DNA from: Pseudomonas sp. BN102
GTDB taxonomy: Bacteria > Pseudomonadota > Gammaproteobacteria > Pseudomonadales > Pseudomonadaceae
Direction: 5' to 3'
Assembly (NCBI RefSeq): GCF_029871245.1
Contig: NZ_SSON01000078.1
Coordinates: forward strand, 62,001 to 126,000
Length of the DNA stretch: 64,000 bases
Shown here: piece after piece, positions 37,686 through 48,517 of the stretch
Layout: every line of letters begins with the position of its first letter
Numbering within the stretch: position 1 is the stretch's first letter
The notes under the pieces: generated by a model
What the model was told of the DNA's origin: nothing
The model's input: only the letters and a program-made list of their open reading frames with translations
Database searches by the model: none
Position numbers and translations under genes: made by a program

Positions 37686-39224
37686 ATGACCGAAATCAGC
37701 GGTACTCGCCCTCTCCCGCCCAGCCAGCCGCTCGCCCGCCCCGCGCAGAACGCCGCGGATCTGGCGCTCCGGCTTTTGCAGCCGCTGGACGGCCTGCTGG
37801 CCGCCGGGGAGAGCGCCGAGGCCGAAGTCATCGCCCTCAAGGAAACCGCCCAGAGCTTCCAGGTGCTGCTGAAGCTGACCCTGGGCAATGGCAGCCAGGC
37901 CACCCTGGAGGTCATCAGCCCGCGGCCTCTGGCCGAGGGCAGCCAGCTGAACGTCACCGCGCTCTCGGACACCCGCCTGGCCATGGTCCTCAAAGTCGCT
38001 GAAGCGGCCCTCGGCAGCCTCGACCTGGAGCTACTGCCGCTGGGCAGCCTGGTCCAGGGCAAGGTGGTATCCAGCGAACTGGCTGCCCAGGGCAAGGCCC
38101 AGGCAGCGGTCTACAAGGTACTGGTCAATCTGCTCAACACACCGCTCGCCGGCCGCCAGTTGAGCATCGAGAGCCCGCGGCCACTGGCCGTCGGCAGCCT
38201 CCTCAGCGCCCAGGTCCAGGGCAGCCAGATGCTGCAGTTCCTGCCCCTGGCCGCGCAGCTGAACCAGCTCGAACTCACCCAGCAGTTGGCCGGCCAGCAG
38301 AGCCGCCAGGGCTCCCTCGAGGGCCTGCACCGTGCCCTACAGGCCATAGGCCGGGACAAACTTCCGGACAACCTGCACGGCGCCGTGGACCGACTGCTCG
38401 GCGCCCTGCCCGACATCCGCCAGCTCGGCGACCCAAAGCTGCTGGCCCAGGCCCTGGAGAACAGCGGCGCGCTGCTGGAGTCGCGCCTGCTCGCCGGCCA
38501 GGCCGGCGCTCTGCCCCAGGACCTCAAGGCCAACCTGCTGCGCCTGATCGGCCAACTGCTGCCGGCCCTGCCGACACCCTCCAGCCTGCCGACCACCGGC
38601 ACCAGCAATGCGATGGCCCAGGCCCTGCCGGCCTTCATCCGCAATGCCCTCAGCGCCCTTGGCCAGGCCAATGCCCGCCAGCAGGCCCTGAGTTTTCCCC
38701 TGCCGTCGCGGCTGGCCCAGACCGCCGAAGACGAAGGCGACCTGGAAACCCTGCTCAAGCTGGCCGCCGCCGCCGTCTCGCGGCTGCAGACCCACCAGTT
38801 GTCCAGCTTGGCCCAGACCCAGGTGACACCCGAAGGCAACCTGCTGACCACCTGGCAGCTGGAAGTGCCGATGCGCAATCAGCAGGAACTGGTCCCACTG
38901 CAGATCAAGCTGCAGCAGGAGCAGGACTCCCGGCAGGAAAAGGGCGAGCGCAAGGAAAGCCTCTGGCGCGTCGAACTGGCCTTCGATCTGGATCCCCTGG
39001 GCCCGCTGCAGGTCCAGGCGCAACTGGTCCAGGGCAGCTTGTCGAGCCAGCTCTGGGCCGAGCGCCCCGCCACCGCCAGCCTGATCGACCATGAACTACC
39101 GCACCTGCGCGAGCGCCTGCTGGCCGCCGGCCTCGATGTGGGCGAACTGGCCTGCCGCCAGGGCAAGCCGCCCCAGGGACAACGTACGACCCTCGAGCAA
39201 CGCTGGGTGGATGAAACCGCATGA
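37686..39224 (+). CDS. FliK-like flagellar hook-length control protein
   Basis: This 512-residue protein is rich in Leu, Ala and Gln. The C-terminal 120 or so residues (about 380-500) match the Flg_hook/FliK C-terminal substrate-switch domain: WQLEVPMRNQQELVPLQIKL, then WRVELAFDLDPLGPLQVQAQL. The rest is Ala/Gln-rich and probably extended, as expected of a ruler. True Pseudomonas fliK lies elsewhere in the flagellar cluster, so this may be a paralogue, paired here with an FlhB C-terminal-like protein. ATG at 37686 is preferred to the adjoining TTG. Confidence 0.75.
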   Translation: MTEISGTRPLPPSQPLARPAQNAADLALRLLQPLDGLLAAGESAEAEVIALKETAQSFQVLLKLTLGNGSQATLEVISPRPLAEGSQLNVTALSDTRLAMVLKVAEAALGSLDLELLPLGSLVQGKVVSSELAAQGKAQAAVYKVLVNLLNTPLAGRQLSIESPRPLAVGSLLSAQVQGSQMLQFLPLAAQLNQLELTQQLAGQQSRQGSLEGLHRALQAIGRDKLPDNLHGAVDRLLGALPDIRQLGDPKLLAQALENSGALLESRLLAGQAGALPQDLKANLLRLIGQLLPALPTPSSLPTTGTSNAMAQALPAFIRNALSALGQANARQQALSFPLPSRLAQTAEDEGDLETLLKLAAAAVSRLQTHQLSSLAQTQVTPEGNLLTTWQLEVPMRNQQELVPLQIKLQQEQDSRQEKGERKESLWRVELAFDLDPLGPLQVQAQLVQGSLSSQLWAERPATASLIDHELPHLRERLLAAGLDVGELACRQGKPPQGQRTTLEQRWVDETA

Positions 39225-39345
39225 TTCCAACTCCGTTGCATGCGTCCAGCTTTGTCGGCTGCGCTCACAGCTCCTCACCGTACTATTCGTACTGTCTCGT
39301 CGCTGCTCACCTGCGTTCGCGCTGCGCTTTTGCAAGGAACCCGGA
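39225..39345. other. Unusual spacer between the FliK-like and FlhB-like genes
   Basis: These 121 bp differ in composition from the neighbouring coding DNA and contain CGGCTGCGCTCACAGCTCC, TACTATTCGTACTG and CACCTGCGTTCGCGCTGCGC, a run of CTGCG/CGCTG words. No start, terminator or promoter is obvious. It resembles intergenic filler repeats of Pseudomonas, but only one copy is in the window. Confidence 0.4.
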
Positions 39346-39687
39346 ATGAGCCAGAAGAAGCCGCGCCAGGCCATCGCTCTCTCCTACGACGGCGTCAGCG
39401 CCCCCAACCTGACGGCCAAGGGCGACGACGAACTGGCCGAAGCCATTCTCGCCATCGCTCGCGAGTACGAAGTGCCCATCTACGAGAATGCCGATCTGGT
39501 GCGCCTGCTGGCGCGGCTGGAACTGGGCGACGCGATTCCCGAGGCGCTCTACCGCACCATCGCCGAGATCATCGCCTTCGCCTGGTACCTCAAGGGCAAG
39601 TGCCCGGCCGGTTTCGATCAGGAAGCTGCAAACGCCCAACGCGACATCAGTCCGCCGATGGAGCGCCTGACGGATCCGGCTGGGTGA
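39346..39687 (+). CDS. FlhB C-terminal-domain-like protein
   Basis: This 113-residue protein resembles the cytoplasmic C-terminal domain of FlhB/YscU after the cleavage site: AIALSYDGVSAPNLTAKGDDELAEAILAIAREYEVPIYENADLVRLLARLELGDAIPEALY. The NPTH autocleavage motif and transmembrane part are absent. Stand-alone versions (FhlX/FlhB2) can complement the cleaved part of FlhB in some bacteria. With the FliK-like gene upstream it forms a plausible export-switch pair. Its last 41 bp overlap the convergent rhodanese gene. Confidence 0.8.
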   Translation: MSQKKPRQAIALSYDGVSAPNLTAKGDDELAEAILAIAREYEVPIYENADLVRLLARLELGDAIPEALYRTIAEIIAFAWYLKGKCPAGFDQEAANAQRDISPPMERLTDPAG

Positions 39688-40105
39688 ACACCAGACGCTC
39701 GCCCGCCAGGCCTTTTCCCTGCGGGAAGTCCTGCAGCTGCCAGGCGAAATACCCCTCGCGGAAATAGAACACCTGGCGGTACCCCCAGCTCACCGCCAAC
39801 CTCACCGCCTCGGCGCCATGGGGGCAGACCTCGCTGTCGCAGTAGATCACCAGCGGCACCTGGCGCGGCCATTGCGGCTGGGCGAGGTCGCCGAAGCGGC
39901 TCAGCAGGTCCAGGTGAAGGGCACCGTGGACATGGCCCCAGGCCCATTCGCGGGTGGGCCGGACATCGATGAAGATCGCCCCTCGCTCGTACAGATAACG
40001 CGCCTGCAGCACATTGACCGTCATCGCGCCCTCCACCTCCATGGGAGCCTCCTGGGCCTCGAGCAGGGGTACCAGGCAGAACAGAAGCAGTGGAAGCAGA
40101 CGCAT
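39647..40105 (-). CDS. Periplasmic rhodanese-like protein
   Basis: This 152-residue protein has a signal peptide (residues 1-18) and one rhodanese domain with IFIDVRPTREWAWGHVHGALHLDL, and an active-site loop starting IYCDSEVCPHGAEA; the catalytic position is the first Cys. It could move sulfane sulfur or act in redox repair in the periplasm. Its stop codon lies inside the 3' end of the convergent FlhB-like gene. Confidence 0.84.
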   Translation of the reverse strand: MRLLPLLLFCLVPLLEAQEAPMEVEGAMTVNVLQARYLYERGAIFIDVRPTREWAWGHVHGALHLDLLSRFGDLAQPQWPRQVPLVIYCDSEVCPHGAEAVRLAVSWGYRQVFYFREGYFAWQLQDFPQGKGLAGERLVFTQPDPSGAPSAD

Positions 40106-40463
40106 GACCGGACCTCCCCGGAGAGAAGCCCCGGAATTTCAGCTTAGGCCAGCCCGGCCGGCGCGGATTGGAACTCTTGGCGCCGCTCGACAAGGGGCTA
40201 ATAGCTCCCGGCTCTAAGCCGCCCACCGCACATCGCGACCAGGCTGGAACCCCCGTACCACGCGGCCTGCAGGCGATGAGCGGTGTTTTACAGGCGCTTT
40301 GGCCGACCCATACTCTCTGGCGTCATGGGTTGCTCGCCGTACATGACCCCAACCGAAACAAGGAGACAAGTTCAAGGGCGACGTACCAAACCACTGCAGT
40401 AGCTCGCGCGGATTTTGGATACACGGGCAGGGTGCGCCCCCTTGTTGAATAGGAGTGTTCAAC
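40106..40463. other. Intergenic region upstream of the metallopeptidase locus
   Basis: 358 bp without a supported gene. A 94-codon frame at 40168-40452 has no recognisable features and no good Shine-Dalgarno. The strand has AAGGAGA at 40375 and AGGAG at 40451; the latter belongs to the GTG at 40464. No convincing -35/-10 pair was found. Confidence 0.4.
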
Positions 40464-42581
40464 GTGTCCAACTTGCCTGAAAATTCGCAAATCCCTCCCA
40501 TGCCCGACCTGCTCCTTCCCAGCCAGGAAGACGGTCCAACACCCGCTCCGATCGCCCTCAATCCCAACCTGCCCCAGCCCCTCCCGGGGAAAATAATCCT
40601 GCCACCATTGCGTAGCGTGCGTGCCGGGTGCTGGCTGCTGAACTACAAACCCAGCGGCGCGTCCCTGGTGTCCTACGACGGGACCCTGCGGGTGGAGAGC
40701 CACAGCGATGGACGCACCGCCAGCGGCGACCTCTACCAGCGACCGGTGATCTTCCTGCCCATCCCGATCCCCACGCCCTTCCCGGTCCTCCAGGGCCAGC
40801 CCCGCATCAGCCAGGACCTGCCACTCAAGCCGATCCTCCTCGCTGGCCCCAACCCGGCTTCCGGCATCCCGATCCTCGCGCGCTCGCGCTATCGCTATTA
40901 CATCCGCGTCACCGCCCTGCCGGAGTACTTCTACCTGGGCAACAGCTTCGGCCTGACCTTCCAGCTCTACCGCTTCACCGCGCCCAATAGCTGGGCCCTG
41001 GAGTCCACTCTCACCGCGCAGATGGTGCGCATGACGGCGCCGGCGGGCTATCCCTCGCCGGCTGACTACGCCGAAGGCGATGTGAAGAACGCTGCCAACA
41101 CCGTGGTCGGACGCCTGACCATGGGCTGGCTGTCCAGTTACTTCCGCCGCTGCACCATCGAGATCGACACGGTATCCGGCTCCGAACGCCCCACCAACAG
41201 CGGCGCCGGCCATACCTGGGCGACCGTGATGGACGCCATAGGCTTCCAGACCACGGTGAACCTCAGCGACACCAATGTGGCCGAGCCCACTGGCAACTCC
41301 TGGTCCGACGGCGAGATGCACCTGGCGATGCTGACGCGGCGCGCGGCGGTCAACCTCGACAGCGAATGGCGGTACCACATCCTGGCGGTGAAGAACATCG
41401 ATTCCACGCCACGCGGAATCATGTACGACGCCGGCGGCACGGACTCCAACAAAGTGCCCCGTGAAGGTGTCGGCATCGCCTCCCACTGGATCATCGACCC
41501 GGGCTGGGGCACGGTCAGCGGCCAGCGCTTCGGCACGGCGGCGGCGCCCTACTTCCGTACCGCGGTGCATGAGCTGGGCCACGCCATGGGGCTGTACCAC
41601 AACTTCGCCGACCACGGCTTCATGTGCACCAGCGATGTCATCGCCGCGGCCGGCACCCCGGCCACGCCCTTCCCCAGCAACATCCAGTGGTCCTTCCACC
41701 CCGATAACCTCAAGCAGCTGCGCCACTACCCCGACGTCTTCGTGCGCCCTGGCTCGGTGGCCTTCGGCGGCGCTTCGACCAGCACGCCGAACATCACCCC
41801 GACCGACCTGGAAGCCGAAGTCTATGGCCTGGCCGTGGAGGTCAGCCCGCTGCTGGGCGAAGTGCCCCTGGGTGCGCCGGTGCGGGTGGACGTGGCCCTG
41901 GTAAACCAGGGCGACCAACCGGTGAGCGTGCCGGCGACCCTGAGCCTGAAGAGCGACTTCGTCAGCGGTTTCGTGGTCGATCCCGCAGGCACGCGACGCA
42001 GCTTCCGCACCGTCGTTCACTGTATCGAGGACCGCCCCTTCCGGGTGCTGCAGCCGGGCGAGCGGCTGGAGAGCTCCATGACCCTGTTGCGCGGTGCCGA
42101 AGGGGCGTTGTTCGGCGTTCCCGGTATCCATGAAGTGCGGGTCGAGGTGCACTGGGAGATCGACGGCATGGTCGCCCATCTGGCCGGCAGCTCCACCGTC
42201 ATGGTGACGGCCGCGGTCGACGCCCGGCATGCAGAGGCCGCGCACAAGGTGCTGGCGACACCCGACCTGCACCTGGTGCTGGCACTTGGTGGCGACCACC
42301 TCAGCGAAGGCCTGGAGGCCCTGGAGGCGGCCCTCGACTCGGCGGTGCTCAAGCCGCACTTCGCAGCCATCGCGGCGAAACGGCTGGCGCGCCGCTTCAT
42401 CAAGCGCCGGCCCGACGCCAAGGCGGCCTCGGCACTGCTCGACCAGGACACCGTGATGAGCGACACCGAGCGCGACAAACTGGCCCGGCTCATCGAGGAT
42501 GCCGGCGGTGCGGCGTCCAAGGACCTGGCCAAGGCGCTCAAGGGCAAGGCGAAGTCCGCCCCCCTGGAACGTGCCAAGTAG
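40464..42581 (+). CDS. Matrixin-like zinc metallopeptidase, no signal peptide
   Basis: This 705-residue protein carries the metzincin zinc signature HELGHAMGLYH (H369, E370, H373, H379) and a Met-turn candidate Met387, eight residues after the third His, the spacing of matrix metalloproteases. The N-terminal 340 or so residues are beta-rich and unassigned, without a propeptide cysteine switch that I can recognise. After the catalytic domain come an Ig-like beta domain (about 450-585) and a Lys/Ala-rich helical tail (about 590-705). No signal peptide is seen (starts VSNLPENSQIPPMP), so export, if any, is non-classical. The start is the GTG at 40464 after AGGAG. It leads the three-gene accessory locus. 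Confidence 0.7.
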   Translation: MSNLPENSQIPPMPDLLLPSQEDGPTPAPIALNPNLPQPLPGKIILPPLRSVRAGCWLLNYKPSGASLVSYDGTLRVESHSDGRTASGDLYQRPVIFLPIPIPTPFPVLQGQPRISQDLPLKPILLAGPNPASGIPILARSRYRYYIRVTALPEYFYLGNSFGLTFQLYRFTAPNSWALESTLTAQMVRMTAPAGYPSPADYAEGDVKNAANTVVGRLTMGWLSSYFRRCTIEIDTVSGSERPTNSGAGHTWATVMDAIGFQTTVNLSDTNVAEPTGNSWSDGEMHLAMLTRRAAVNLDSEWRYHILAVKNIDSTPRGIMYDAGGTDSNKVPREGVGIASHWIIDPGWGTVSGQRFGTAAAPYFRTAVHELGHAMGLYHNFADHGFMCTSDVIAAAGTPATPFPSNIQWSFHPDNLKQLRHYPDVFVRPGSVAFGGASTSTPNITPTDLEAEVYGLAVEVSPLLGEVPLGAPVRVDVALVNQGDQPVSVPATLSLKSDFVSGFVVDPAGTRRSFRTVVHCIEDRPFRVLQPGERLESSMTLLRGAEGALFGVPGIHEVRVEVHWEIDGMVAHLAGSSTVMVTAAVDARHAEAAHKVLATPDLHLVLALGGDHLSEGLEALEAALDSAVLKPHFAAIAAKRLARRFIKRRPDAKAASALLDQDTVMSDTERDKLARLIEDAGGAASKDLAKALKGKAKSAPLERAK

Positions 42582-42597
42582 CCAGTTGAGGAACGGA

Positions 42598-42627
42598 GCG
42601 GCGCGGTGGCTCAGGCCATCGCGCCGC
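42598..42627 (+). terminator. Strong hairpin between the metallopeptidase and the 99-residue gene
   Basis: A 13-bp stem (42598-42610 with 42615-42627, one G-T wobble) closes on the tetraloop TCAG. It is followed by CCTTGTCG rather than a T-run, so it is probably an attenuator or mRNA-stabilising structure within the operon. The next gene's AGGAG lies 15 bp beyond. Confidence 0.6.
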
Positions 42628-42652
42628 CCTTGTCGAATCAGGAGATTGCAGC

Positions 42653-42952
42653 ATGGCGGCACTGGACATGGGACTGGTGGGCGAGTGGCACCGCAGCACG
42701 GAGCAGCTCTGTGCGGCCGGCTATGCCATGCACCTGCGCTTCGAACCCAACGGGCTCTACTTCGGCCGCAGCGAACCTCCCGGCACCTTCACCTGGTGGG
42801 ACGGCGGCACCTGGGAGGTCAAGGCTCCCGGCCAGCTCGCGCTGTCGACCGCCAATGACGCGGTGGTCTCCTACGACTATGTGCTCGACGCCCGCACCCT
42901 TACCTTCATCGACGCCTCGGGTTGCCGGTTCGCCTATCGCCGTGACGACTGA
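42653..42952 (+). CDS. Small beta-rich protein of unknown function
   Basis: This 99-residue protein has no signal peptide, a high content of aromatic and Gly residues, and an alternating strand pattern (LVGEWHRSTEQLC, YAMHLRFEPNGLYFGRS, FTWWDGGTWEVK, LTFIDASGCRFAYRR), consistent with a small beta-barrel resembling lipocalin-like or Inh-type folds. I do not recognise a family. Lying between two metallopeptidase-like genes, 71 and 33 bp away, it could be an inhibitor or assembly partner. AGGAG supports its ATG. Confidence 0.6.
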   Translation: MAALDMGLVGEWHRSTEQLCAAGYAMHLRFEPNGLYFGRSEPPGTFTWWDGGTWEVKAPGQLALSTANDAVVSYDYVLDARTLTFIDASGCRFAYRRDD

Positions 42953-42985
42953 ACCCCGGGCCTGAACCATTGCCAGGAGGGCGAT

Positions 42986-45754
42986 ATGCCAGGCCCCTTC
43001 CCCGCCACGGTCTTCTTCGACCTGGGCGACACCCTGATCTTCACCACTGGCGGCGTGCGCCAGCGCTACGCCGACACCCTGGACTGCCTGCAGATCCTCA
43101 AGGCCCGCGGCTATCGCCTCGGCCTGATCAGCAACCAGGCGGCAGGAACGACACTCGCCGACATCCAGGCACTGCTCGAGCAGCTGCGCCTGGCGCGCTA
43201 TATCGAGCCCGAGCTGGTCACCCTGTCCACCGAGATCCCGGGTAACCTCGGCAAGCCGGCGCAGCCGATCTTCGACCTGGCGCTGGCCAAGGCGCAGCAC
43301 TCGGCGGCCAGCGGCAGGGCGATCTTCATCAGCGAAGCCCCGGCGGACGTAATGGCCGCACGGGGTTTCGGCTGGCGGGCGATCCTCAAGCGCAATGCCG
43401 GTGCCTGCGTGCCGGGCGACGGCGAGTGCGTCGGCAGCCTGGCCGGGCTGCTCGGCCTGCTGCCGGCGCTGGCCGACCTGGCGGGCGGCAACCTCGACCT
43501 GGCACCACCGCCACGCCTCGTGGATGGCCTGTGGGCGGTGCCCATCGATATCGCCCGGATCAACGCCAGCCTGCGCTTCGATGCGGCGACCCAGCAGGCG
43601 ACGGGCGATGCGACCCTGGAGTTCCGCCTCGGCGCCAATGCCGGCTGCCCCATCTTCGACCTGCGCCAGACCCCGACCGGCGCCTGGCTCGATGGGGCGC
43701 CGCTCGCCCTCACCGAAGTGACGGGCCACGACTTCGGCGGCGGCGCCAATGCCAATCTGCGGGTGCTCGCCCGGGTGCTGGAAGCCGGCAGCAGCCACAG
43801 CCTGCGCCTGACCTATGGGCTCGGCATGCCGCAAGCCTCGATGGCCGGCTCCTACCTGCCACAGATCACCTGGAGCGCCGGCCCACGGCTGGTGTTCAAC
43901 TTCGGCTTCACCGACCTGGGCGCCGGACGCTACCTGGAGGCCTTCGTCCCGGCCAACCTCATCTACGACCAGTTCGTGCTGGAGCTGGAGCTGCAACTGG
44001 TCAACACCCCCATCGCCCACACGCCGATCAGCAATGGCACCATCACCCCGCTCGGCAGCAACCATTGGAGCATCGCCTTCCCTGCCCGCTACACGGCCCT
44101 GTCGCCGCTGCTGGAGCTGCGTGCGACGGACAGCCTGCAAAGCACCACGGTCAATGTGGCGCTGCCGGTCTCGGGAACCAACGTGGCGGTAACCGCCTGG
44201 AAGCTGGCCAGCAGCCCCGTGGACCTGGTCGCCCAGGCCAACGCCATCGCCGGCTTTCTCGTCGCCAACGAAAACAGCTCGGGACGCTACATCCACGGCG
44301 GGCGCTTCACCGCCTTCATCCACCAGGGCGGCATGGAGTACGAGGGCGGCACCACGACCGGCACCGGGCCACTGCGCCACGAGACTTTCCACAGCTGGTG
44401 GGCGCGCGGCCTCAAGCCGGCGAGCCAGCCGGACGCCTGGTTCGACGAGGCCTGGACGGTCTACAACGACAACGGTGCGGCTGGCGTGCTGCCGTTCAAC
44501 TTCGCCAGTCCCGCCGTGGCGCTGTGTTCACGTAATCCGTGGGTACGCATCACCCATATCGACGCCTATGGCGCCGGCGAACGGGTCTGGAAAGGCGTGG
44601 CCGCCCTGGTGGGAGCAGCCAGTCTTCGCGACCTGTTGCGCGCCTTCTACCTGGCGCACTATCCGCGCCCGGTGCGTACCGAGGACATCGAGTGCCACCT
44701 GGTCGCGCGCACCGGCAATCCGGATTGCGTGGATGCCTTCCACCGCTTCGTCTATGGCTTCGGCGACCCGTCGCCATTGCCTGACCTCTGGATTCGCGAC
44801 GACGCGACGGACCCCGGCGCCAACGACTGGGCGGGCCGCTTCTGGGACTCGCCGGACCTGTGGATTCGCAATCGCGATGACGGCGGCCTGGTTCACCAGA
44901 ACCTCGAGTACGGCCAGGACAACTGGATCCATGCGCGGGTGCGCAACCGTAGCGCCTCGGCCAGCGCCCGCCACCTGGTGGTCAGTTTCAATATCAAGCA
45001 GTACGCCGGAAGCCAGTTCGTCTACCCCGCCGATTTCCTGCCCGCCGTCACCGCCGTGGCGGCCTTCGACCTCGGTCCCGGCGAGACGCGCATCGTCAAG
45101 GCACGCCTGCCGCGCAACTCGATACCGCCGGTGGGTAGCCACCCTTGCCTGCTGGCCAGCGTGCTGACGCGCTTCGACCGTCCGCTCGCCGGGCGTCATG
45201 TCTGGGAACAGAACAACCTGGCGCAGAAGAACCTGAGCGTGGTCGACCTCGCGCCGAACGCCTGGATTGTGCTGCCACTCCTGGCCATCAACCTGCGTCC
45301 GCGCCTGTCGCGCACCGTGGAGCTGGAGCTGATCCGGCCAGCGGGCCTGGATACCCTGGCGGCCAGCCTGCTGGTGGAGAAACGCGCGCTGCCAACGCCA
45401 CTGAGGAGCGCCGCTGCCGTGCTGCCCCGGGCACCTGCCCCGACACGCCCTGCTCCCCTGGACTGCGCCTGTGGCGACCACGCGGCTCCGGCCGACGCCG
45501 AACCGGCGCTGCTGACCAGCCATGCGCCGGAACGCCTGGCCGAAGCCTTTCCCGGCGCCCTGGAACTGGCCTTCGCCCCCGGCAAGCGCGCGCAACTGCC
45601 GGTGCTGCTGCGCCCAGCCGAGTCCCTGCGCGTGGGCCTGCGGGTCAAGGTGCCGCCGAACGCCAAGCGGGGTACGCGCTTCACCGTCGATCTGGTGCAG
45701 CGGGAGAACGGGAAGATAGTGGGCGGTGTGGCGCTGGAGGTGCGGGTGAGCTAG
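42986..45754 (+). CDS. HAD-like domain fused to an M1/M61-like gluzincin
   Basis: This 922-residue protein opens with a HAD-like region (about residues 1-165): motif I FFDLGDTL, motif II SNQ, a possible motif III Lys in NLGKPAQP and a motif IV-like SEAPADVMAAR in which the usual Asp is absent, so phosphatase activity is doubtful. About 170-330 resembles the M1 N-terminal beta saddle. The catalytic part has GGMEY (448-452), HETFH (465-469) and Glu488 exactly 18 residues later, then WTVY, matching the gluzincin HExxH-18-E ligand set and the M61-like HExFHxW pattern. PDLWIR occurs twice (599, 623) before beta-sandwich C-terminal domains. There is no signal peptide. CAGGAGG supports the start. 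Confidence 0.68.
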   Translation: MPGPFPATVFFDLGDTLIFTTGGVRQRYADTLDCLQILKARGYRLGLISNQAAGTTLADIQALLEQLRLARYIEPELVTLSTEIPGNLGKPAQPIFDLALAKAQHSAASGRAIFISEAPADVMAARGFGWRAILKRNAGACVPGDGECVGSLAGLLGLLPALADLAGGNLDLAPPPRLVDGLWAVPIDIARINASLRFDAATQQATGDATLEFRLGANAGCPIFDLRQTPTGAWLDGAPLALTEVTGHDFGGGANANLRVLARVLEAGSSHSLRLTYGLGMPQASMAGSYLPQITWSAGPRLVFNFGFTDLGAGRYLEAFVPANLIYDQFVLELELQLVNTPIAHTPISNGTITPLGSNHWSIAFPARYTALSPLLELRATDSLQSTTVNVALPVSGTNVAVTAWKLASSPVDLVAQANAIAGFLVANENSSGRYIHGGRFTAFIHQGGMEYEGGTTTGTGPLRHETFHSWWARGLKPASQPDAWFDEAWTVYNDNGAAGVLPFNFASPAVALCSRNPWVRITHIDAYGAGERVWKGVAALVGAASLRDLLRAFYLAHYPRPVRTEDIECHLVARTGNPDCVDAFHRFVYGFGDPSPLPDLWIRDDATDPGANDWAGRFWDSPDLWIRNRDDGGLVHQNLEYGQDNWIHARVRNRSASASARHLVVSFNIKQYAGSQFVYPADFLPAVTAVAAFDLGPGETRIVKARLPRNSIPPVGSHPCLLASVLTRFDRPLAGRHVWEQNNLAQKNLSVVDLAPNAWIVLPLLAINLRPRLSRTVELELIRPAGLDTLAASLLVEKRALPTPLRSAAAVLPRAPAPTRPAPLDCACGDHAAPADAEPALLTSHAPERLAEAFPGALELAFAPGKRAQLPVLLRPAESLRVGLRVKVPPNAKRGTRFTVDLVQRENGKIVGGVALEVRVS

Positions 45755-45762
45755 TCAGGTAC

Positions 45763-45779
45763 GGCAGGGAATCCCTGCC
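45763..45779. terminator. Short palindromic hairpin between convergent genes
   Basis: GGCAGGGAATCCCTGCC is a perfect short palindrome nine bases after the stop of the 922-residue protein, in the 50-bp gap before the convergent DUF2802 gene. No T-tract follows, so termination is uncertain. Confidence 0.4.
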
Positions 45780-45804
45780 TGGCTGGGCCCGGCTGACCTG
45801 CGGT

Positions 45805-46215
45805 TCAGTCCCGATCCTTCTGCGCCTGGTGCAGCTTGCTTACCAGTTCGGCCTCGGCCTTGGTCAGGCCGCAGGATTGGGTGAGGTCCTCGACGCTGGC
45901 GCCGAGGCCGACCAGGCGGGCGGCCTGGCTGAAGGACAGGCTGCTGGGGTCGCGCTGTTCGATCTGGTTGAGCTTGTCCGGCAGCGGCGCCACCAGGCGG
46001 CGCAGCTCGTGCAGCTCCTCGCCCATGCGAACGCTGCCGTCCACGAAAGTGTCCAGGCGCTTGACCAGCTCCTTGAGCTTTTGGTCGCGCACGGCGTCGC
46101 GCTCGGCCTGGGCCGCCACTTCCTCGCGCAGACGCCTGGCCAGCCGATGGCTGACGTAGCCCAGGCCCATGCAGGCCAGAGCCAGGGCCGCCGCGAGCAG
46201 TGCGATCCAGATCAA
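45805..46215 (-). CDS. DUF2802 membrane-anchored protein
   Basis: This 136-residue protein has an N-terminal anchor helix (residues 2-22), a charged coiled coil (about 28-75) and a C-terminal helical DUF2802 domain (FSQAARLVGLGASVEDLTQSCGLTKAEAELVSKLHQ). The family is tied to chemotaxis/flagellar clusters of polar-flagellated gammaproteobacteria; no biochemical function is established. The start is a TTG one base after the cheW stop (TGAGTTG), with GGAGAG upstream, so translation is coupled to cheW. Confidence 0.82.
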   Translation of the reverse strand: MIWIALLAAALALACMGLGYVSHRLARRLREEVAAQAERDAVRDQKLKELVKRLDTFVDGSVRMGEELHELRRLVAPLPDKLNQIEQRDPSSLSFSQAARLVGLGASVEDLTQSCGLTKAEAELVSKLHQAQKDRD

Positions 46216-46216
46216 C

Positions 46217-46696
46217 TCAGATACTCTCCAGCTCCGACCATTCTTCCTCGCTCATCATCTTGTCCAGCTCGACGAGGATCAGCAGTTCGCCGTTCTTGTT
46301 GCAGACGCCCTGGATGAACTTGGCGGATTCGTCGTTGCCGACGTTGGGTGCGGTCTCGATCTCCGACTGGCGCAGATAGACCACCTCGGCCACGCTGTCG
46401 ACCAGGATTCCCACCACCTGCTTGTCCGCCTCGATGATGACGATGCGGGTGTTGTCGGTCACCGGCGCCGGGCCCAGGCCGAAGCGCTGGCGGGTGTCGA
46501 TCACGGTCACCACGTTGCCGCGCAGGTTGATGATACCCAGCACATAGCTCGGCGCCCCCGGCACCGGGGCGATCTCGGTGTAGCGCAGGACTTCCTGCAC
46601 CTGCATCACGTTGATGCCGTAGGTTTCGTTGTCCAGGCGGAAAGTCACCCATTGCAGGATGGGATCTTCGGCACCTTGAGCGGACGATTTCTTCAT
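46217..46696 (-). CDS. cheW: Chemotaxis coupling protein CheW
   Basis: This 159-residue CheW domain protein covers the complete double SH3-like fold: QWVTFRLDNETYGINVMQVQEVLRY, APVPGAPSYVLGIINLRGNVVTVID, and the Q/N.K..G central loop. It links chemoreceptors to CheA at the pole. The ATG at 46696 fits the family; a GTG at 46720 is the only alternative. Confidence 0.94.
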   Translation of the reverse strand: MKKSSAQGAEDPILQWVTFRLDNETYGINVMQVQEVLRYTEIAPVPGAPSYVLGIINLRGNVVTVIDTRQRFGLGPAPVTDNTRIVIIEADKQVVGILVDSVAEVVYLRQSEIETAPNVGNDESAKFIQGVCNKNGELLILVELDKMMSEEEWSELESI

Positions 46697-46792
46697 GTTC
46701 CCTAGCCTCTCTTGAGCCACCGCTGGGCGGCGTTCGCGGGTTCGGCCCGCTGTTGTGTTCCTATGGGGCCCCGTGCACCACGGGGCCTCCCC

Positions 46793-47641
46793 TCAATTCA
46801 GCGACATGCGCCTGATGGCGCCGCTGGCGATCAGTTCGGCCAGGGCCGAGACGTCCAGCAGCGCACACATATGCTCGATCACGGTACCGGCCAGCCAGGG
46901 CCTCTGGCTACGCTGGCTGCGCCATTTGATTTCGCTCGGATCCAGGCGGATCGAGCGGCTGACCTGATGCACCGCCAGGCCCCACTCGTAGCCCTGCACC
47001 GAAATCACGTACTGCAGGCCTTCGCGGAAGTCGTCGCGATAGCGTTCGGGCATCACCCAGCGCGCAGTATCCAGGACCTTCAGGTTGCCGGCCTGGCACG
47101 GCAGGATGCCGAGGAACCAGTCCGGCTGGCCGAACAGCGGGGTCAGCTCCTGCCCTGCCAGCGGGTAAATGGAGCCCAGCGAGACCAGCGGCACCGCCAG
47201 GGTCAGGCCGGCGACATCGAACAGCAGGCACTCGAAGGGTTCCTCACCCCAGGCCGGACGGCCACCTGCCAGCGCCGGGATATCCAGCGACTGGGAACCC
47301 GGCGCGCTGAGCTCCACCAGCGGCTCGACACGAGCCTGCACAGGTTCGGCCACCGAAACGGCGGGCACCAGGAACTCCGGTTCCCACTCGGGCTCCGGCT
47401 CGAACTCCACGTCGACCGGCGCGATCACCGGCGCAACGGTCAGCTCGGGCGCCGCCAGGGGCGTCTCGGCGAGCACGCGGGTCAGGCGCGCGTCGCGCAC
47501 CTGCTCCTCCAGCACCGCGGCTTCGAACTCTTCCCGGCTGATGCTTTCGGCCAGCTCGACCGAAGCCTCCTGCAGCAACGCATCCAGGTACGACTGCAGG
47601 GCCAGTTGCGGGCGGGTGGCGGTAGCGAGGGGACGACTCAT
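46793..47641 (-). CDS. CheW-domain polar array protein ParP
   Basis: This 282-residue protein has an N-terminal region with a short helical segment (about residues 15-60), a long Pro/Glu/Val-rich disordered part, and a C-terminal CheW-like domain (about 135-270; CLLFDVAGLTLAVPLVSLGSIYPL). In Vibrio the matching gene is ParP, which binds ParC and the CheA localisation segment to keep chemotaxis arrays polar. Its place between parC and cheW supports the same role here. Confidence 0.82.
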   Translation of the reverse strand: MSRPLATATRPQLALQSYLDALLQEASVELAESISREEFEAAVLEEQVRDARLTRVLAETPLAAPELTVAPVIAPVDVEFEPEPEWEPEFLVPAVSVAEPVQARVEPLVELSAPGSQSLDIPALAGGRPAWGEEPFECLLFDVAGLTLAVPLVSLGSIYPLAGQELTPLFGQPDWFLGILPCQAGNLKVLDTARWVMPERYRDDFREGLQYVISVQGYEWGLAVHQVSRSIRLDPSEIKWRSQRSQRPWLAGTVIEHMCALLDVSALAELIASGAIRRMSLN

Positions 47642-47728
47642 GTTGGGAACCCACGGGATTGATCTGTACAGCCTATCGGCAGCCGACGCCCTTCACTTGA
47701 GCCCCGGCGATCGGCGAGACGACTCACC

Positions 47729-48517
47729 TCAAGCCACCTGGGCAGCCAGCTGCTGGCCGAGCAGGTGCTTGAGCAGGGCGCGGTAGGCGATCACGCCGCG
47801 GCTGTTGGCATCGTACTGGGACGGCGTGACGCCGGCACGGCTGGCATCGCGCAGGCGGGTATCCACCGGGATATAGGCTTGCCAGAGATGCTCCGGGTAG
47901 TTATTGCGCAGCACCTTGAGGGTATTGAGCGAAGCCTGGGTGCGCCGGTCGAAGAGGGTCGGCACGATGCTGTAGGGCAGCGCCTGCTTGCGCGAACGGT
48001 TGACCATGGCCAGGGTGCTGACCATGCGTTCCAGGCCCTTCACCGCGAGGAACTCGGTCTGCACCGGGATGACCAGCTGCTGGCTGGCGGCCAGGGCGTT
48101 GACCATGAGCACGCCGAGCAGCGGCGGGCTGTCGATGATGGCATGGTCGAACTGCTGCCAGAGCTGGGTCAGGCTTTTGGCGACCACCAGGCCGAGGCCG
48201 TTCTGCCCCGGCGACTGGCGCTCCAGTGTGGCCAGCGCGGTGCTCGACGGCAGCAGCGAAATGCGTTCGTGGCTGGTCGGCAACAGCAGTTCGCGCGGCA
48301 GGCCATCGGGCACGCCGCCCTGGTTCAGGAACAAGTCGAAGCAGCTGTGCTCCAGGCTGTCCGGGTCGTGCCCGAAATAGCTGGTCATCGACCCATGGGG
48401 GTCGAGGTCCACCACCACCACGCGCTTGCCAGCGTCGGCCAGCAGACCTGCCAGGGCGATCGATGTGGTGGTCTTGCCGACTCCACCTTTTTGGTTGGCT
48501 ACTGCCCAGACTCTCAT
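47729..48517 (-). CDS. ParA-like ATPase ParC (chemotaxis array positioning)
   Basis: This 262-residue Walker-type ATPase has the deviant Walker A KGGVGKTTTS (residues 9-18), VVDLDPHGS and the Walker B region IIDSPPLL. It is part of the che/mot cluster rather than a plasmid-partition system. In Vibrio ParC directs arrays to the new pole. ATG at 48517 has GGAGG at 9-nt spacing; the ATG at 48526 would touch the Shine-Dalgarno. Confidence 0.88.
   Translation of the reverse strand: MRVWAVANQKGGVGKTTTSIALAGLLADAGKRVVVVDLDPHGSMTSYFGHDPDSLEHSCFDLFLNQGGVPDGLPRELLLPTSHERISLLPSSTALATLERQSPGQNGLGLVVAKSLTQLWQQFDHAIIDSPPLLGVLMVNALAASQQLVIPVQTEFLAVKGLERMVSTLAMVNRSRKQALPYSIVPTLFDRRTQASLNTLKVLRNNYPEHLWQAYIPVDTRLRDASRAGVTPSQYDANSRGVIAYRALLKHLLGQQLAAQVA

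What the first reader, a model, noticed from the sequence alone, without database searches (positions are those of the whole stretch)
40464..45754. Three-gene accessory locus with two different, leaderless zinc-metallopeptidase-like proteins
Between conserved flagellar/ccm blocks lies a compact plus-strand locus: a 705-residue matrixin-like protein (HExxHxxGxxH plus Met-turn), a 99-residue beta-rich orphan and a 922-residue HAD-gluzincin fusion, with gaps of 71 and 33 bp. The two peptidase signatures belong to different zincin clans, yet both proteins lack signal peptides and carry beta-sandwich C-terminal regions. Shared operon, shared absence of a leader and a small partner between them suggest a functional set: a proteolytic toxin/effector pair, a maturation cascade, or cytoplasmic processing. 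I do not know a described system with this composition. The individual motifs are seen directly; the joint function is inference.
Basis: partly seen in the sequence, partly recalled or inferred. Interest (0 to 1): 0.78.

Follow-up and report, generated by a model that had tools for sequence, protein, structure and literature searches.

The report
Leaderless protease, barrel partner, aminopeptidase cassette
A small block of genes found as a unit at several chromosomal sites encodes a zinc protease made without an export signal, a tiny barrel-shaped partner that goes with it and may hold it in check, and in some strains a second zinc peptidase, an unusual but testable way of handling a dangerous enzyme.

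Summary
In detail: three plus-strand genes, a 705-aa matrixin-like protein (P1), a 99-aa beta protein (P2) and a 922-aa HAD-gluzincin fusion (P3), gaps 71 and 33 bp, no leader seen on any. They are not chance neighbours. P1 and P2 occur in the same 12 of 248 family genomes, adjacent in 12 of 12; the pair persists in Caballeronia and in a genome related only at phylum level (P1 about 30% identical, gene order reversed). P3 is optional: 7 of those 12, and not without P1 there. The cassette is an insertion of about 5.6 kb: 7 of 18 congeners carry it at this site and 11 show the empty site; 6 of 10 further three-gene loci lie elsewhere. P3's catalytic part is M1-aminopeptidase-like; in 3 loci outside Pseudomonas a P3 homologue sits beside a leaderless M36-type protease instead. 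P2 models as an eight-stranded calycin-type barrel. Best reading: a leaderless endopeptidase with its own cytoplasmic restraint (inhibitor or immunity protein), optionally joined by an aminopeptidase, analogous to protealysin-emfourin but built from other families. Inhibition, export route and substrates are inferred, not shown.

The parts
40190..45800 (.). Whole inserted cassette (edges approximate, within about 100 bp): own upstream region plus three genes; no integrase or transposase gene seen inside
   Evidence: Empty site in 11 of 18 congeneric genomes: left flank ends at window 40106-40182, right flank restarts at 45801-45830, 42-146 bp between them in the empty genomes; four empty sites read
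40287..40314 (+). Sigma70-like promoter candidate TTTACA-N16-CATACT inside the insertion
   Evidence: Consensus scan, 1 found against 0.4 expected: weak
40416..40463 (+). Strongly conserved 5' leader immediately before P1
   Evidence: 15-sequence alignment; a 48-column block is 79-98% identical to the window in 14 loci, above P1 third codon positions (58-85%) in 9 of 9 loci compared
40444..40463 (+). Hairpin GUUGAAUA-GGAG-UGUUCAAC with the Shine-Dalgarno in the loop; candidate Rsm/CsrA-type translational control site (inferred)
   Evidence: Folds locally in 5 of 5 stretches tested (window twice, L041, L044, L012), but energies are not significant against shuffles, z 0.73 to -1.22; pattern found once in the window against 0.02 expected; by eye not kept in L040 or Caballeronia
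40464..42581 (+). P1, leaderless matrixin-like metalloprotease, 705 aa
41568..41600 (+). Zinc motif HELGHAMGLYH (residues 369-379)
   Evidence: Zinc ligands and Glu invariant in 15 homologues
41622..41624 (+). Met-turn methionine, residue 387
   Evidence: Invariant in 15 homologues
42653..42952 (+). P2, 99-aa calycin-like barrel, partner of P1, candidate inhibitor or immunity protein
42986..45754 (+). P3, leaderless HAD - M1-like aminopeptidase - C-terminal module fusion, 922 aa
43001..43414 (+). HAD-like domain of P3, apparently without a C1 cap (length only), with D+2 replaced by G and the second motif IV acid not kept (D or H)
   Evidence: PF00702 at 27.3 bits, cut-off 26.4; alignment
43502..44785 (+). 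M1-like gluzincin core of P3 (residues 173-600)
   Evidence: hhalign to 8 PepN proteins: probability 91.6, E 8.3e-7; stand-alone relative L020 matches PF01433 above cut-off; the window protein itself does not
44327..44341 (+). GGMEY, counterpart of the M1 GxMEN exopeptidase motif (correspondence recalled)
   Evidence: G448, G449, M450, E451, Y452 invariant in 11 homologues
44378..44449 (+). HExxH-x18-E zinc site of P3 (residues 465-488)
   Evidence: Invariant in 11 homologues
44777..45751 (+). C-terminal module of P3 (residues 598-922), shared with the M36-type partner outside Pseudomonas
   Evidence: hhalign probability 99.7, E 4e-27
45763..45779 (.). Inverted repeat GGCAGGGA-A-TCCCTGCC after P3, without a T run
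   Evidence: Read directly; not called as a terminator

Best explanation
A horizontally moving accessory cassette whose core is a two-gene unit: P1, a zinc endopeptidase made without a leader or recognisable propeptide, and P2, a small cytoplasmic calycin-type barrel that binds P1 and keeps it from harming the cell that makes it (inhibitor or immunity protein). In a subset of strains P3, an M1-type aminopeptidase fused to a probably non-phosphatase HAD domain, is added and trims the peptides that P1 releases. Outside Pseudomonas the same aminopeptidase is found beside an M36-type endopeptidase that carries its own FTP propeptide motif and has no P2 nearby. I therefore infer an endopeptidase + exopeptidase theme in which each endopeptidase brings its own restraint. 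The proteins would act inside the cell under a trigger that frees P1, or outside after lysis or export by an unidentified route. Shown: gene linkage, presence as a unit at different sites, purifying selection, intact catalytic residues, partner swap, no leader by a crude test. Inferred: inhibition by P2, peptide trimming by P3, site of action, and control through the conserved Shine-Dalgarno hairpin.
For: P1 and P2 in the same 12 of 248 genomes, adjacent in all 12; the pair is kept in Caballeronia (66% and 54% identical) and in G354 (P1 about 30% identical, P2 upstream, E 2.7e-24). All three genes together in 10 of 15 P3 loci from genome contigs, 4 at the window's site and 6 elsewhere. Empty site in 11 of 18 congeners. 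dN/dS against the window: P1 0.09-0.29 (9 loci), P3 0.17-0.32 (5 loci), P2 0.18-0.66 (5 loci). Catalytic residues invariant. P2 model pLDDT 82, 8 strands; rank 2 in the PDB is an I38-family protein, U-Omp19 (prob 1.00, TMq 0.59, E 0.024), and rank 14 the marine MP protease inhibitor (prob 0.95, E 0.19); 5 of 19 P2 members match Lipocalin_4 weakly (best E 0.0039). Precedent: an intracellular metalloprotease with its inhibitor in one operon, protealysin-emfourin (PMC9505478, passages).
Against: No Foldseek match of P2 has E below 0.001 (best 0.019) and most are other small barrels (ToxS, NlpE, fatty-acid-binding proteins), so the fold does not specify inhibition. None of the 19 members of the P2 alignment matches the Inh family up to E 10; the N-terminal stretch that I38 inhibitors use is variable in P2, and its most conserved loops lie at the other end of the barrel (topology inferred). 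P2 is not fast-evolving in every pair: against L018 its dN (0.022) is below that of P1 (0.041). P1 occurs without P3 in 5 of 12 family genomes. P1-like proteins in a haloarchaeon, a Methylobacterium and an actinomycete have no P2 in the loci searched. In G008 P1 is in two broken pieces with P2 intact. There is no substrate, export or toxicity evidence.
Confidence: 0.5

Rival explanations
1. Antibacterial effector and immunity pair: P1 (with P3 as a second effector or helper) is delivered into rivals by a contact-dependent or contractile machine, and P2 protects kin.
For: Leaderless, patchy, at different chromosomal sites, with a small partner that evolves faster than P1 in 4 of 5 comparisons (e.g. 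dN 0.31 against 0.07 for L009); the same proposal was made for protealysin-emfourin (PMC9505478, passages). One of 19 P2 relatives has a weak Pfam match to an immunity protein, Tsi1, E 0.1.
Against: No delivery gene recognised by eye beside the loci listed nor by Pfam beside the window site (only flagellar genes); no delivery-domain match in P1 or P3. Neighbours of the other loci were not scanned by profile. In the fifth comparison (L018) P2 is slower than P1.
Confidence: 0.2
2. Peptide scavenging set: P1 and P3 digest protein released by lysed cells, and P2 is a folding, stability or ligand-binding helper rather than an inhibitor.
For: Endopeptidase plus aminopeptidase is a natural digestive pair; the partner swap with an M36-type enzyme fits; calycin barrels often bind ligands, and fatty-acid-binding proteins are among the fold matches.
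Against: Does not explain why P2 goes with P1 in the 12 of 12 genomes but is absent beside the M36-type enzyme, nor the lack of leaders.
Confidence: 0.2
3. Intracellular defence or suicide unit: a trigger releases P1 from P2 and the proteases kill or arrest the cell.
For: Presence at different sites, patchiness, leaderless proteases, small partner.
Against: No PADLOC match; no sensor domain found; no clear prophage copy (no P1 in the phage collection; one IMG/VR contig, L040, has a fimbrial-like gene by eye and looks bacterial).
Confidence: 0.07
4. Chance neighbours with independent functions.
For: P3 homologues occur elsewhere without P1.
Against: 12 of 12 P1-P2 adjacency in 248 genomes, and three-gene sets at unrelated chromosomal sites.
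Confidence: 0.03

Closest known systems
Protealysin-emfourin operon of Serratia proteamaculans (PMC9505478; passages seen)
   Same: Intracellular zinc metalloprotease and a small inhibitor encoded in one operon; proposed for interbacterial competition
   Different: Protealysin is an M4 (thermolysin-type) enzyme and emfourin another inhibitor family (partly recalled); P1 is a metzincin and P2 a calycin-like barrel; I know of no counterpart there to P3 or to presence as a unit at different sites (recalled)
AprA-AprI (alkaline protease and I38 inhibitor)
   Same: Metzincin with a small beta-barrel inhibitor gene nearby (recalled); I38 is a calycin barrel with a conserved Trp (PMC9486555, passages)
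   Different: AprA is an RTX protease exported by type I secretion and AprI is periplasmic (recalled); P1 has no RTX match, P2 lacks the Inh profile, conserved cysteines and a conserved N-terminal stretch
M1 aminopeptidases (PepN)
   Same: HExxH-x18-E, GxMEx-like motif, alignable to the N-terminal and catalytic domains
   Different: HAD fused in front, different C-terminal module, below Pfam detection in the window copy
Stand-alone relatives of the P3 core (L020 Planctomycetota, L022 Nannocystis)
   Same: 38-41% identical over about residues 173-598 of P3
   Different: No HAD and no C-terminal module matched; exported-type N-terminus by eye, start sites not certain

Membership tests
Protealysin-emfourin operon | M4 protease | tested here: not met
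   No M4 match in P1 at E up to 1
Protealysin-emfourin operon | Emfourin inhibitor | tested here: not met
   No emfourin match among 19 P2 members at E up to 10; that Pfam holds an emfourin model is recalled
Protealysin-emfourin operon | Leaderless protease beside a small partner, one transcription unit | tested here: inconclusive
   Same strand, gap 71 bp, adjacent in 12 of 12 genomes; co-transcription not tested
I38 (Inh) protease inhibitors | Inh sequence profile (PF02974) | tested here: not met
   None of 19 P2 members matches at E up to 10
I38 (Inh) protease inhibitors | Eight-stranded calycin barrel | tested here: inconclusive
   8 strands in model; I38 proteins at ranks 2 and 14, E 0.024 and 0.19, among other small barrels
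I38 (Inh) protease inhibitors | Conserved Trp (Trp15 of APRin) | tested here: met
   W12, in the first strand, invariant in 19; that they correspond is inferred; feature from PMC9486555, passages
I38 (Inh) protease inhibitors | Conserved disulfide and about 10-residue N-terminal inhibitory stretch | tested here: not met
   C20 and C91 not conserved; residues 2-7 variable
Matrixin-type metzincin (M10) | HExxHxxGxxH and Met-turn | tested here: met
   Invariant in 15; G354 has N for the G
Matrixin-type metzincin (M10) | Pfam gathering score | tested here: not met
   19.6 bits against 24
M1 aminopeptidase | HExxH-x18-E and GxMEx-like motif | tested here: met
   Invariant in 11
M1 aminopeptidase | Pfam PF01433 on the window protein | tested here: not met
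   No match at E up to 1; one of 11 homologues E 0.084; relative L020 matches, 36.1 against 27.7 bits; hhalign E 8.3e-7
M1 aminopeptidase | Aminopeptidase activity | not testable with these tools
   -
HAD phosphohydrolase | HAD profile | tested here: met
   PF00702 27.3 bits, cut-off 26.4
HAD phosphohydrolase | DxD and motif IV acids | tested here: not met
   DLGDT: +2 position is G in 11 of 11; motif IV begins with E and its second acid is D or H
Known anti-phage defence proteins | PADLOC profile | tested here: not met
   No match at E up to 1

The most novel reading that the evidence does not exclude
A previously undescribed class of protease cassette: a leaderless metzincin family reaching into Actinobacteria and Haloarchaea whose proteobacterial branch has acquired a dedicated calycin-barrel restraint and an exchangeable exopeptidase partner, in which different leaderless peptidases and adhesin-like proteins share a C-terminal module (P3 598-922) that could be the export or docking signal replacing the N-terminal leader.
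Probability: 0.2. Interest if true: 0.8.

Novelty: new variant of a known kind. Interest (0 to 1): 0.56.

Why it matters
If P2 restrains P1, this is an independent invention of the leaderless-protease-plus-inhibitor arrangement known from protealysin-emfourin, with other families on both sides and as a unit found at different chromosomal sites. It would give a new small inhibitor scaffold against metzincins, a class that includes human MMPs, and a clean case for asking how bacteria use extracellular-type proteases that carry no export signal.

Tried and rejected
M61 (glycyl aminopeptidase) for P3, suggested by HETFHSWW...LKP: hhalign against two M61 proteins gave probability 5.2%, and Pfam M61 only E 0.069 on a relative; M1 fits better. 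AlphaFold2 of P3 failed (mean pLDDT 51, 11-sequence alignment), so no fold search was run on it. Homology between the C-termini of P1 and P3: not found. Inh family (PF02974) in 38 related genomes: none, but the search rang in no control genome either, so it says nothing. Phage origin: no match of P1 in phages; one IMG/VR contig, which looks bacterial. Plasmid copies: P1 in 5 of 72,556 records, only Caballeronia over most of the length; P3 none; P3 C-terminal module none. Rfam 38000-48000: nothing at gathering scores. PHROGs: nothing for P1 and P3, E 0.046 to an unknown family for P2. PDB by sequence for P2: mostly antibody chains at E 0.034 or worse. Literature: eight searches; no listed title or abstract start describes a matrixin-plus-barrel unit. 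Six papers were opened, for passages only; in two of them (PMC7159879, PMC8195603) the metzincin words are only in the reference list, and in PMC6722718 the matrixin is a gene listed beside type I secretion genes, so probably AprA-like (inference). The rest were seen as listings. Rows set aside before counts: G102 (E 5.4e-4, 124 residues, 30%) and G062 (E 1.8e-4, HAD part only). Embleya (a hit) was not examined further. The start codon of the Nannocystis relative L022 is not settled.
Full report
What is there. The window lies in a 6.48-Mb genome; the four named records that share its flanking genes are Pseudomonas. P1 (705 aa) starts at a GTG behind GGAG, with an in-frame TGA at 40446-40448, so no leader can be hidden upstream. 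P2 has 99 aa and P3 922 aa. The flanks are FliK, an FlhB-type C-terminal domain and rhodanese on the left, and DUF2802, CheW, CheW, ParA-type and MotB genes on the right.

P1. Pfam gives only a sub-threshold matrixin match (19.6 against 24 bits), and PDB searches give weak matches to MMPs, ulilysin and mirolysin (E 0.015 or worse). Yet the three His, the Glu and the Met of the Met-turn are invariant in 15 homologues down to 66% identity. Three of the four weaker plasmid-collection matches (Halocatena, Nonomuraea, Methylobacterium; Embleya was not examined) match a P1 profile at E 3e-40 to 2e-23 in a search of four proteins, over the protease and following region. The starts examined there show no signal peptide by a crude hydropathy test, although start sites are uncertain. 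Leaderlessness may therefore be a trait of the family rather than of this locus.

P2 is tied to P1. In 248 genomes of the family, P1 is in 12 (13 matches, one set aside) and P2 in the same 12, with adjacent coordinates in all 12. In 5 of these (G008, G009, G017, G020, G036) there is no P3 and the pair sits in other surroundings, for example beside the flagellin genes in G020 and G036 (by eye). The pair recurs on the Caballeronia insecticola plasmid p1 (P1 66%, P2 54%). In G354, related only at phylum level, P1 is about 30% identical and P2 lies upstream instead of downstream (E 2.7e-24; the best unrelated frame has E 0.96 among 8377 frames). A link that survives this divergence and a flip in order is strong evidence of joint function. 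P1 is rare: 2 of 299 genomes of the phylum including the window's own, and 1 of 397 in the order of G354, namely G354 itself.

The cassette goes about as a unit. Of 15 P3 loci found in genome contigs, 10 (L009-L018) carry all three genes in the same order. Four of these share the window's flanking genes and six do not. In the 18 congeners searched, 7 have the cassette at this site. In the other 11 the left flank ends at window 40106-40182 and the right flank restarts at 45801-45830, with 42-146 bp between them (four of these sites read). Three of the 11 (G008, G009, G017) carry the two-gene version elsewhere, sharing DNA with the window from 40263 to about 42952, that is from the upstream region to the end of P2. 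No integrase or repeat was seen at the edges by eye. Purifying selection acts on all three genes. P2 is the fastest in 4 of 5 comparisons (for example dN 0.31 against 0.07 for P1, window and L009) but not against L018, where its dN (0.022) is the lowest of the three.

P3. The first 140 residues are a HAD fold by profile with nucleophile Asp12, Thr16, Ser49 and Lys90 kept, but the general acid position (+2) is Gly in 11 of 11 and motif IV is altered, so phosphatase activity is doubtful (inference). Residues 173-600 align with the N-terminal and catalytic domains of PepN (probability 91.6, E 8.3e-7). A stand-alone relative from a Planctomycetota MAG, 41% identical, matches Peptidase_M1 above its cut-off, though the window protein itself has no such match. 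HExxH-x18-E, GGMEY and Tyr528 are invariant; reading GGMEY as the exopeptidase motif and Tyr528 as the catalytic Tyr is recalled knowledge. In L019, L021 and L023 (a Desulfurivibrio MAG and two proteobacterial MAGs, titles) P3 relatives follow a protease of about 930 aa without an evident leader. The two that were scanned (L021, L023) match FTP and M36 above cut-off, and the C-terminal module of the three is homologous to that of P3 (E 4e-27). No P1 or P2 was found in those loci; the rest of those genomes was not searched. An endopeptidase with an aminopeptidase is thus the recurring pair; the M36-type enzyme carries its own propeptide motif, while P1 has P2. That parallel is my inference. P3 is rare as well: in 369 genomes of the class only the window's own has it; a second match, G936, covers part of the C-terminal module alone.

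P2 fold and likely role. The model (mean pLDDT 82) has eight strands. Foldseek finds calycin-type and similar barrels: a ToxR-ToxS complex first, U-Omp19 (I38 family) second, fatty-acid-binding proteins, NlpE, and the marine MP protease inhibitor at rank 14; none has E below 0.001. Among the 19 aligned P2 proteins, 5 match Lipocalin_4 (best E 0.0039) and 7 match DUF5640 (best E 0.017), all weak. I38 barrels keep a Trp and use about ten N-terminal residues for inhibition (PMC9486555, passages). P2 keeps a Trp (W12) but not the cysteines or the N-terminal stretch. Many of its invariant residues lie in the loops around 46-52, 65-69 and 87-90, which a simple meander places at the end of the barrel away from the N-terminus (inference). 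So P2 is not an I38 member by the tests made. If it inhibits, it probably does so with a different surface.

Leader. The block of about 48 columns before P1 is 79-98% identical to the window in the other 14 sequences of the alignment, more conserved than third codon positions in 9 of 9 comparisons. It includes a hairpin with the Shine-Dalgarno GGAG in its loop, a layout like CsrA/RsmA sites, where a GGA lies in a hairpin loop and may overlap the ribosome-binding site (PMC7652899, passages). Against this, folding energies are not unusual among shuffles, and by eye the hairpin is not kept in L040 or Caballeronia. I treat Rsm control as a lead.

Comparison with known systems. The nearest in logic is the protealysin-emfourin operon, an intracellular metalloprotease with its inhibitor in one operon, for which a role in bacterial competition has been proposed (PMC9505478, passages). 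Both proteins here come from other families, so this is not a member but may work alike. The paper searches listed no description of this unit; they cover open-access PMC only.

Verdict. The core is P1+P2, P3 is an optional exopeptidase, and the best-supported but unproven mechanism is a leaderless protease under a dedicated barrel-type restraint.

Noticed in passing
L024 8212-11103 (-): Beside the Caballeronia P1-P2 pair, divergently transcribed, lies a 963-aa M14 carboxypeptidase with a vWA domain and no evident leader: a possible third kind of exopeptidase partner, seen once.
   Followed up: partly
L070 5669-8236: An 855-aa adhesin-like protein (by eye) without an evident leader in G936 carries part of the C-terminal module of P3 (E 4.1e-17), so the module is not restricted to peptidases.
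   Followed up: partly
L024 14103-14504: The Caballeronia P2 frame extends upstream into a hydrophobic, signal-peptide-like stretch (12-residue mean hydropathy 2.44) with more than one candidate start; P2 could be periplasmic there.
   Followed up: partly
L022 13797-14708 (-): The Nannocystis locus with a stand-alone M1-like relative also encodes, about 2.5 kb away, another HExxH protein with an apparent signal peptide (by eye).
   Followed up: no
L043 8580-10677: In G008, P1 is split into two overlapping frames while P2 is intact: either a decaying copy or an assembly error.
   Followed up: no
L044 8480-12719; L045 7067-11307: In two genomes the P1-P2 pair lies divergently next to a flagellin-type gene, and the window site is also beside flagellar/chemotaxis genes; it may be coincidence or hint at flagellin as a substrate.
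   Followed up: no
L048 7806-9425; L049 7785-9476; L050 5740-7644: P1-like proteases without an evident leader in a haloarchaeon, a Methylobacterium plasmid and an actinomycete, with no P2-like frame within the loci searched.
   Followed up: partly
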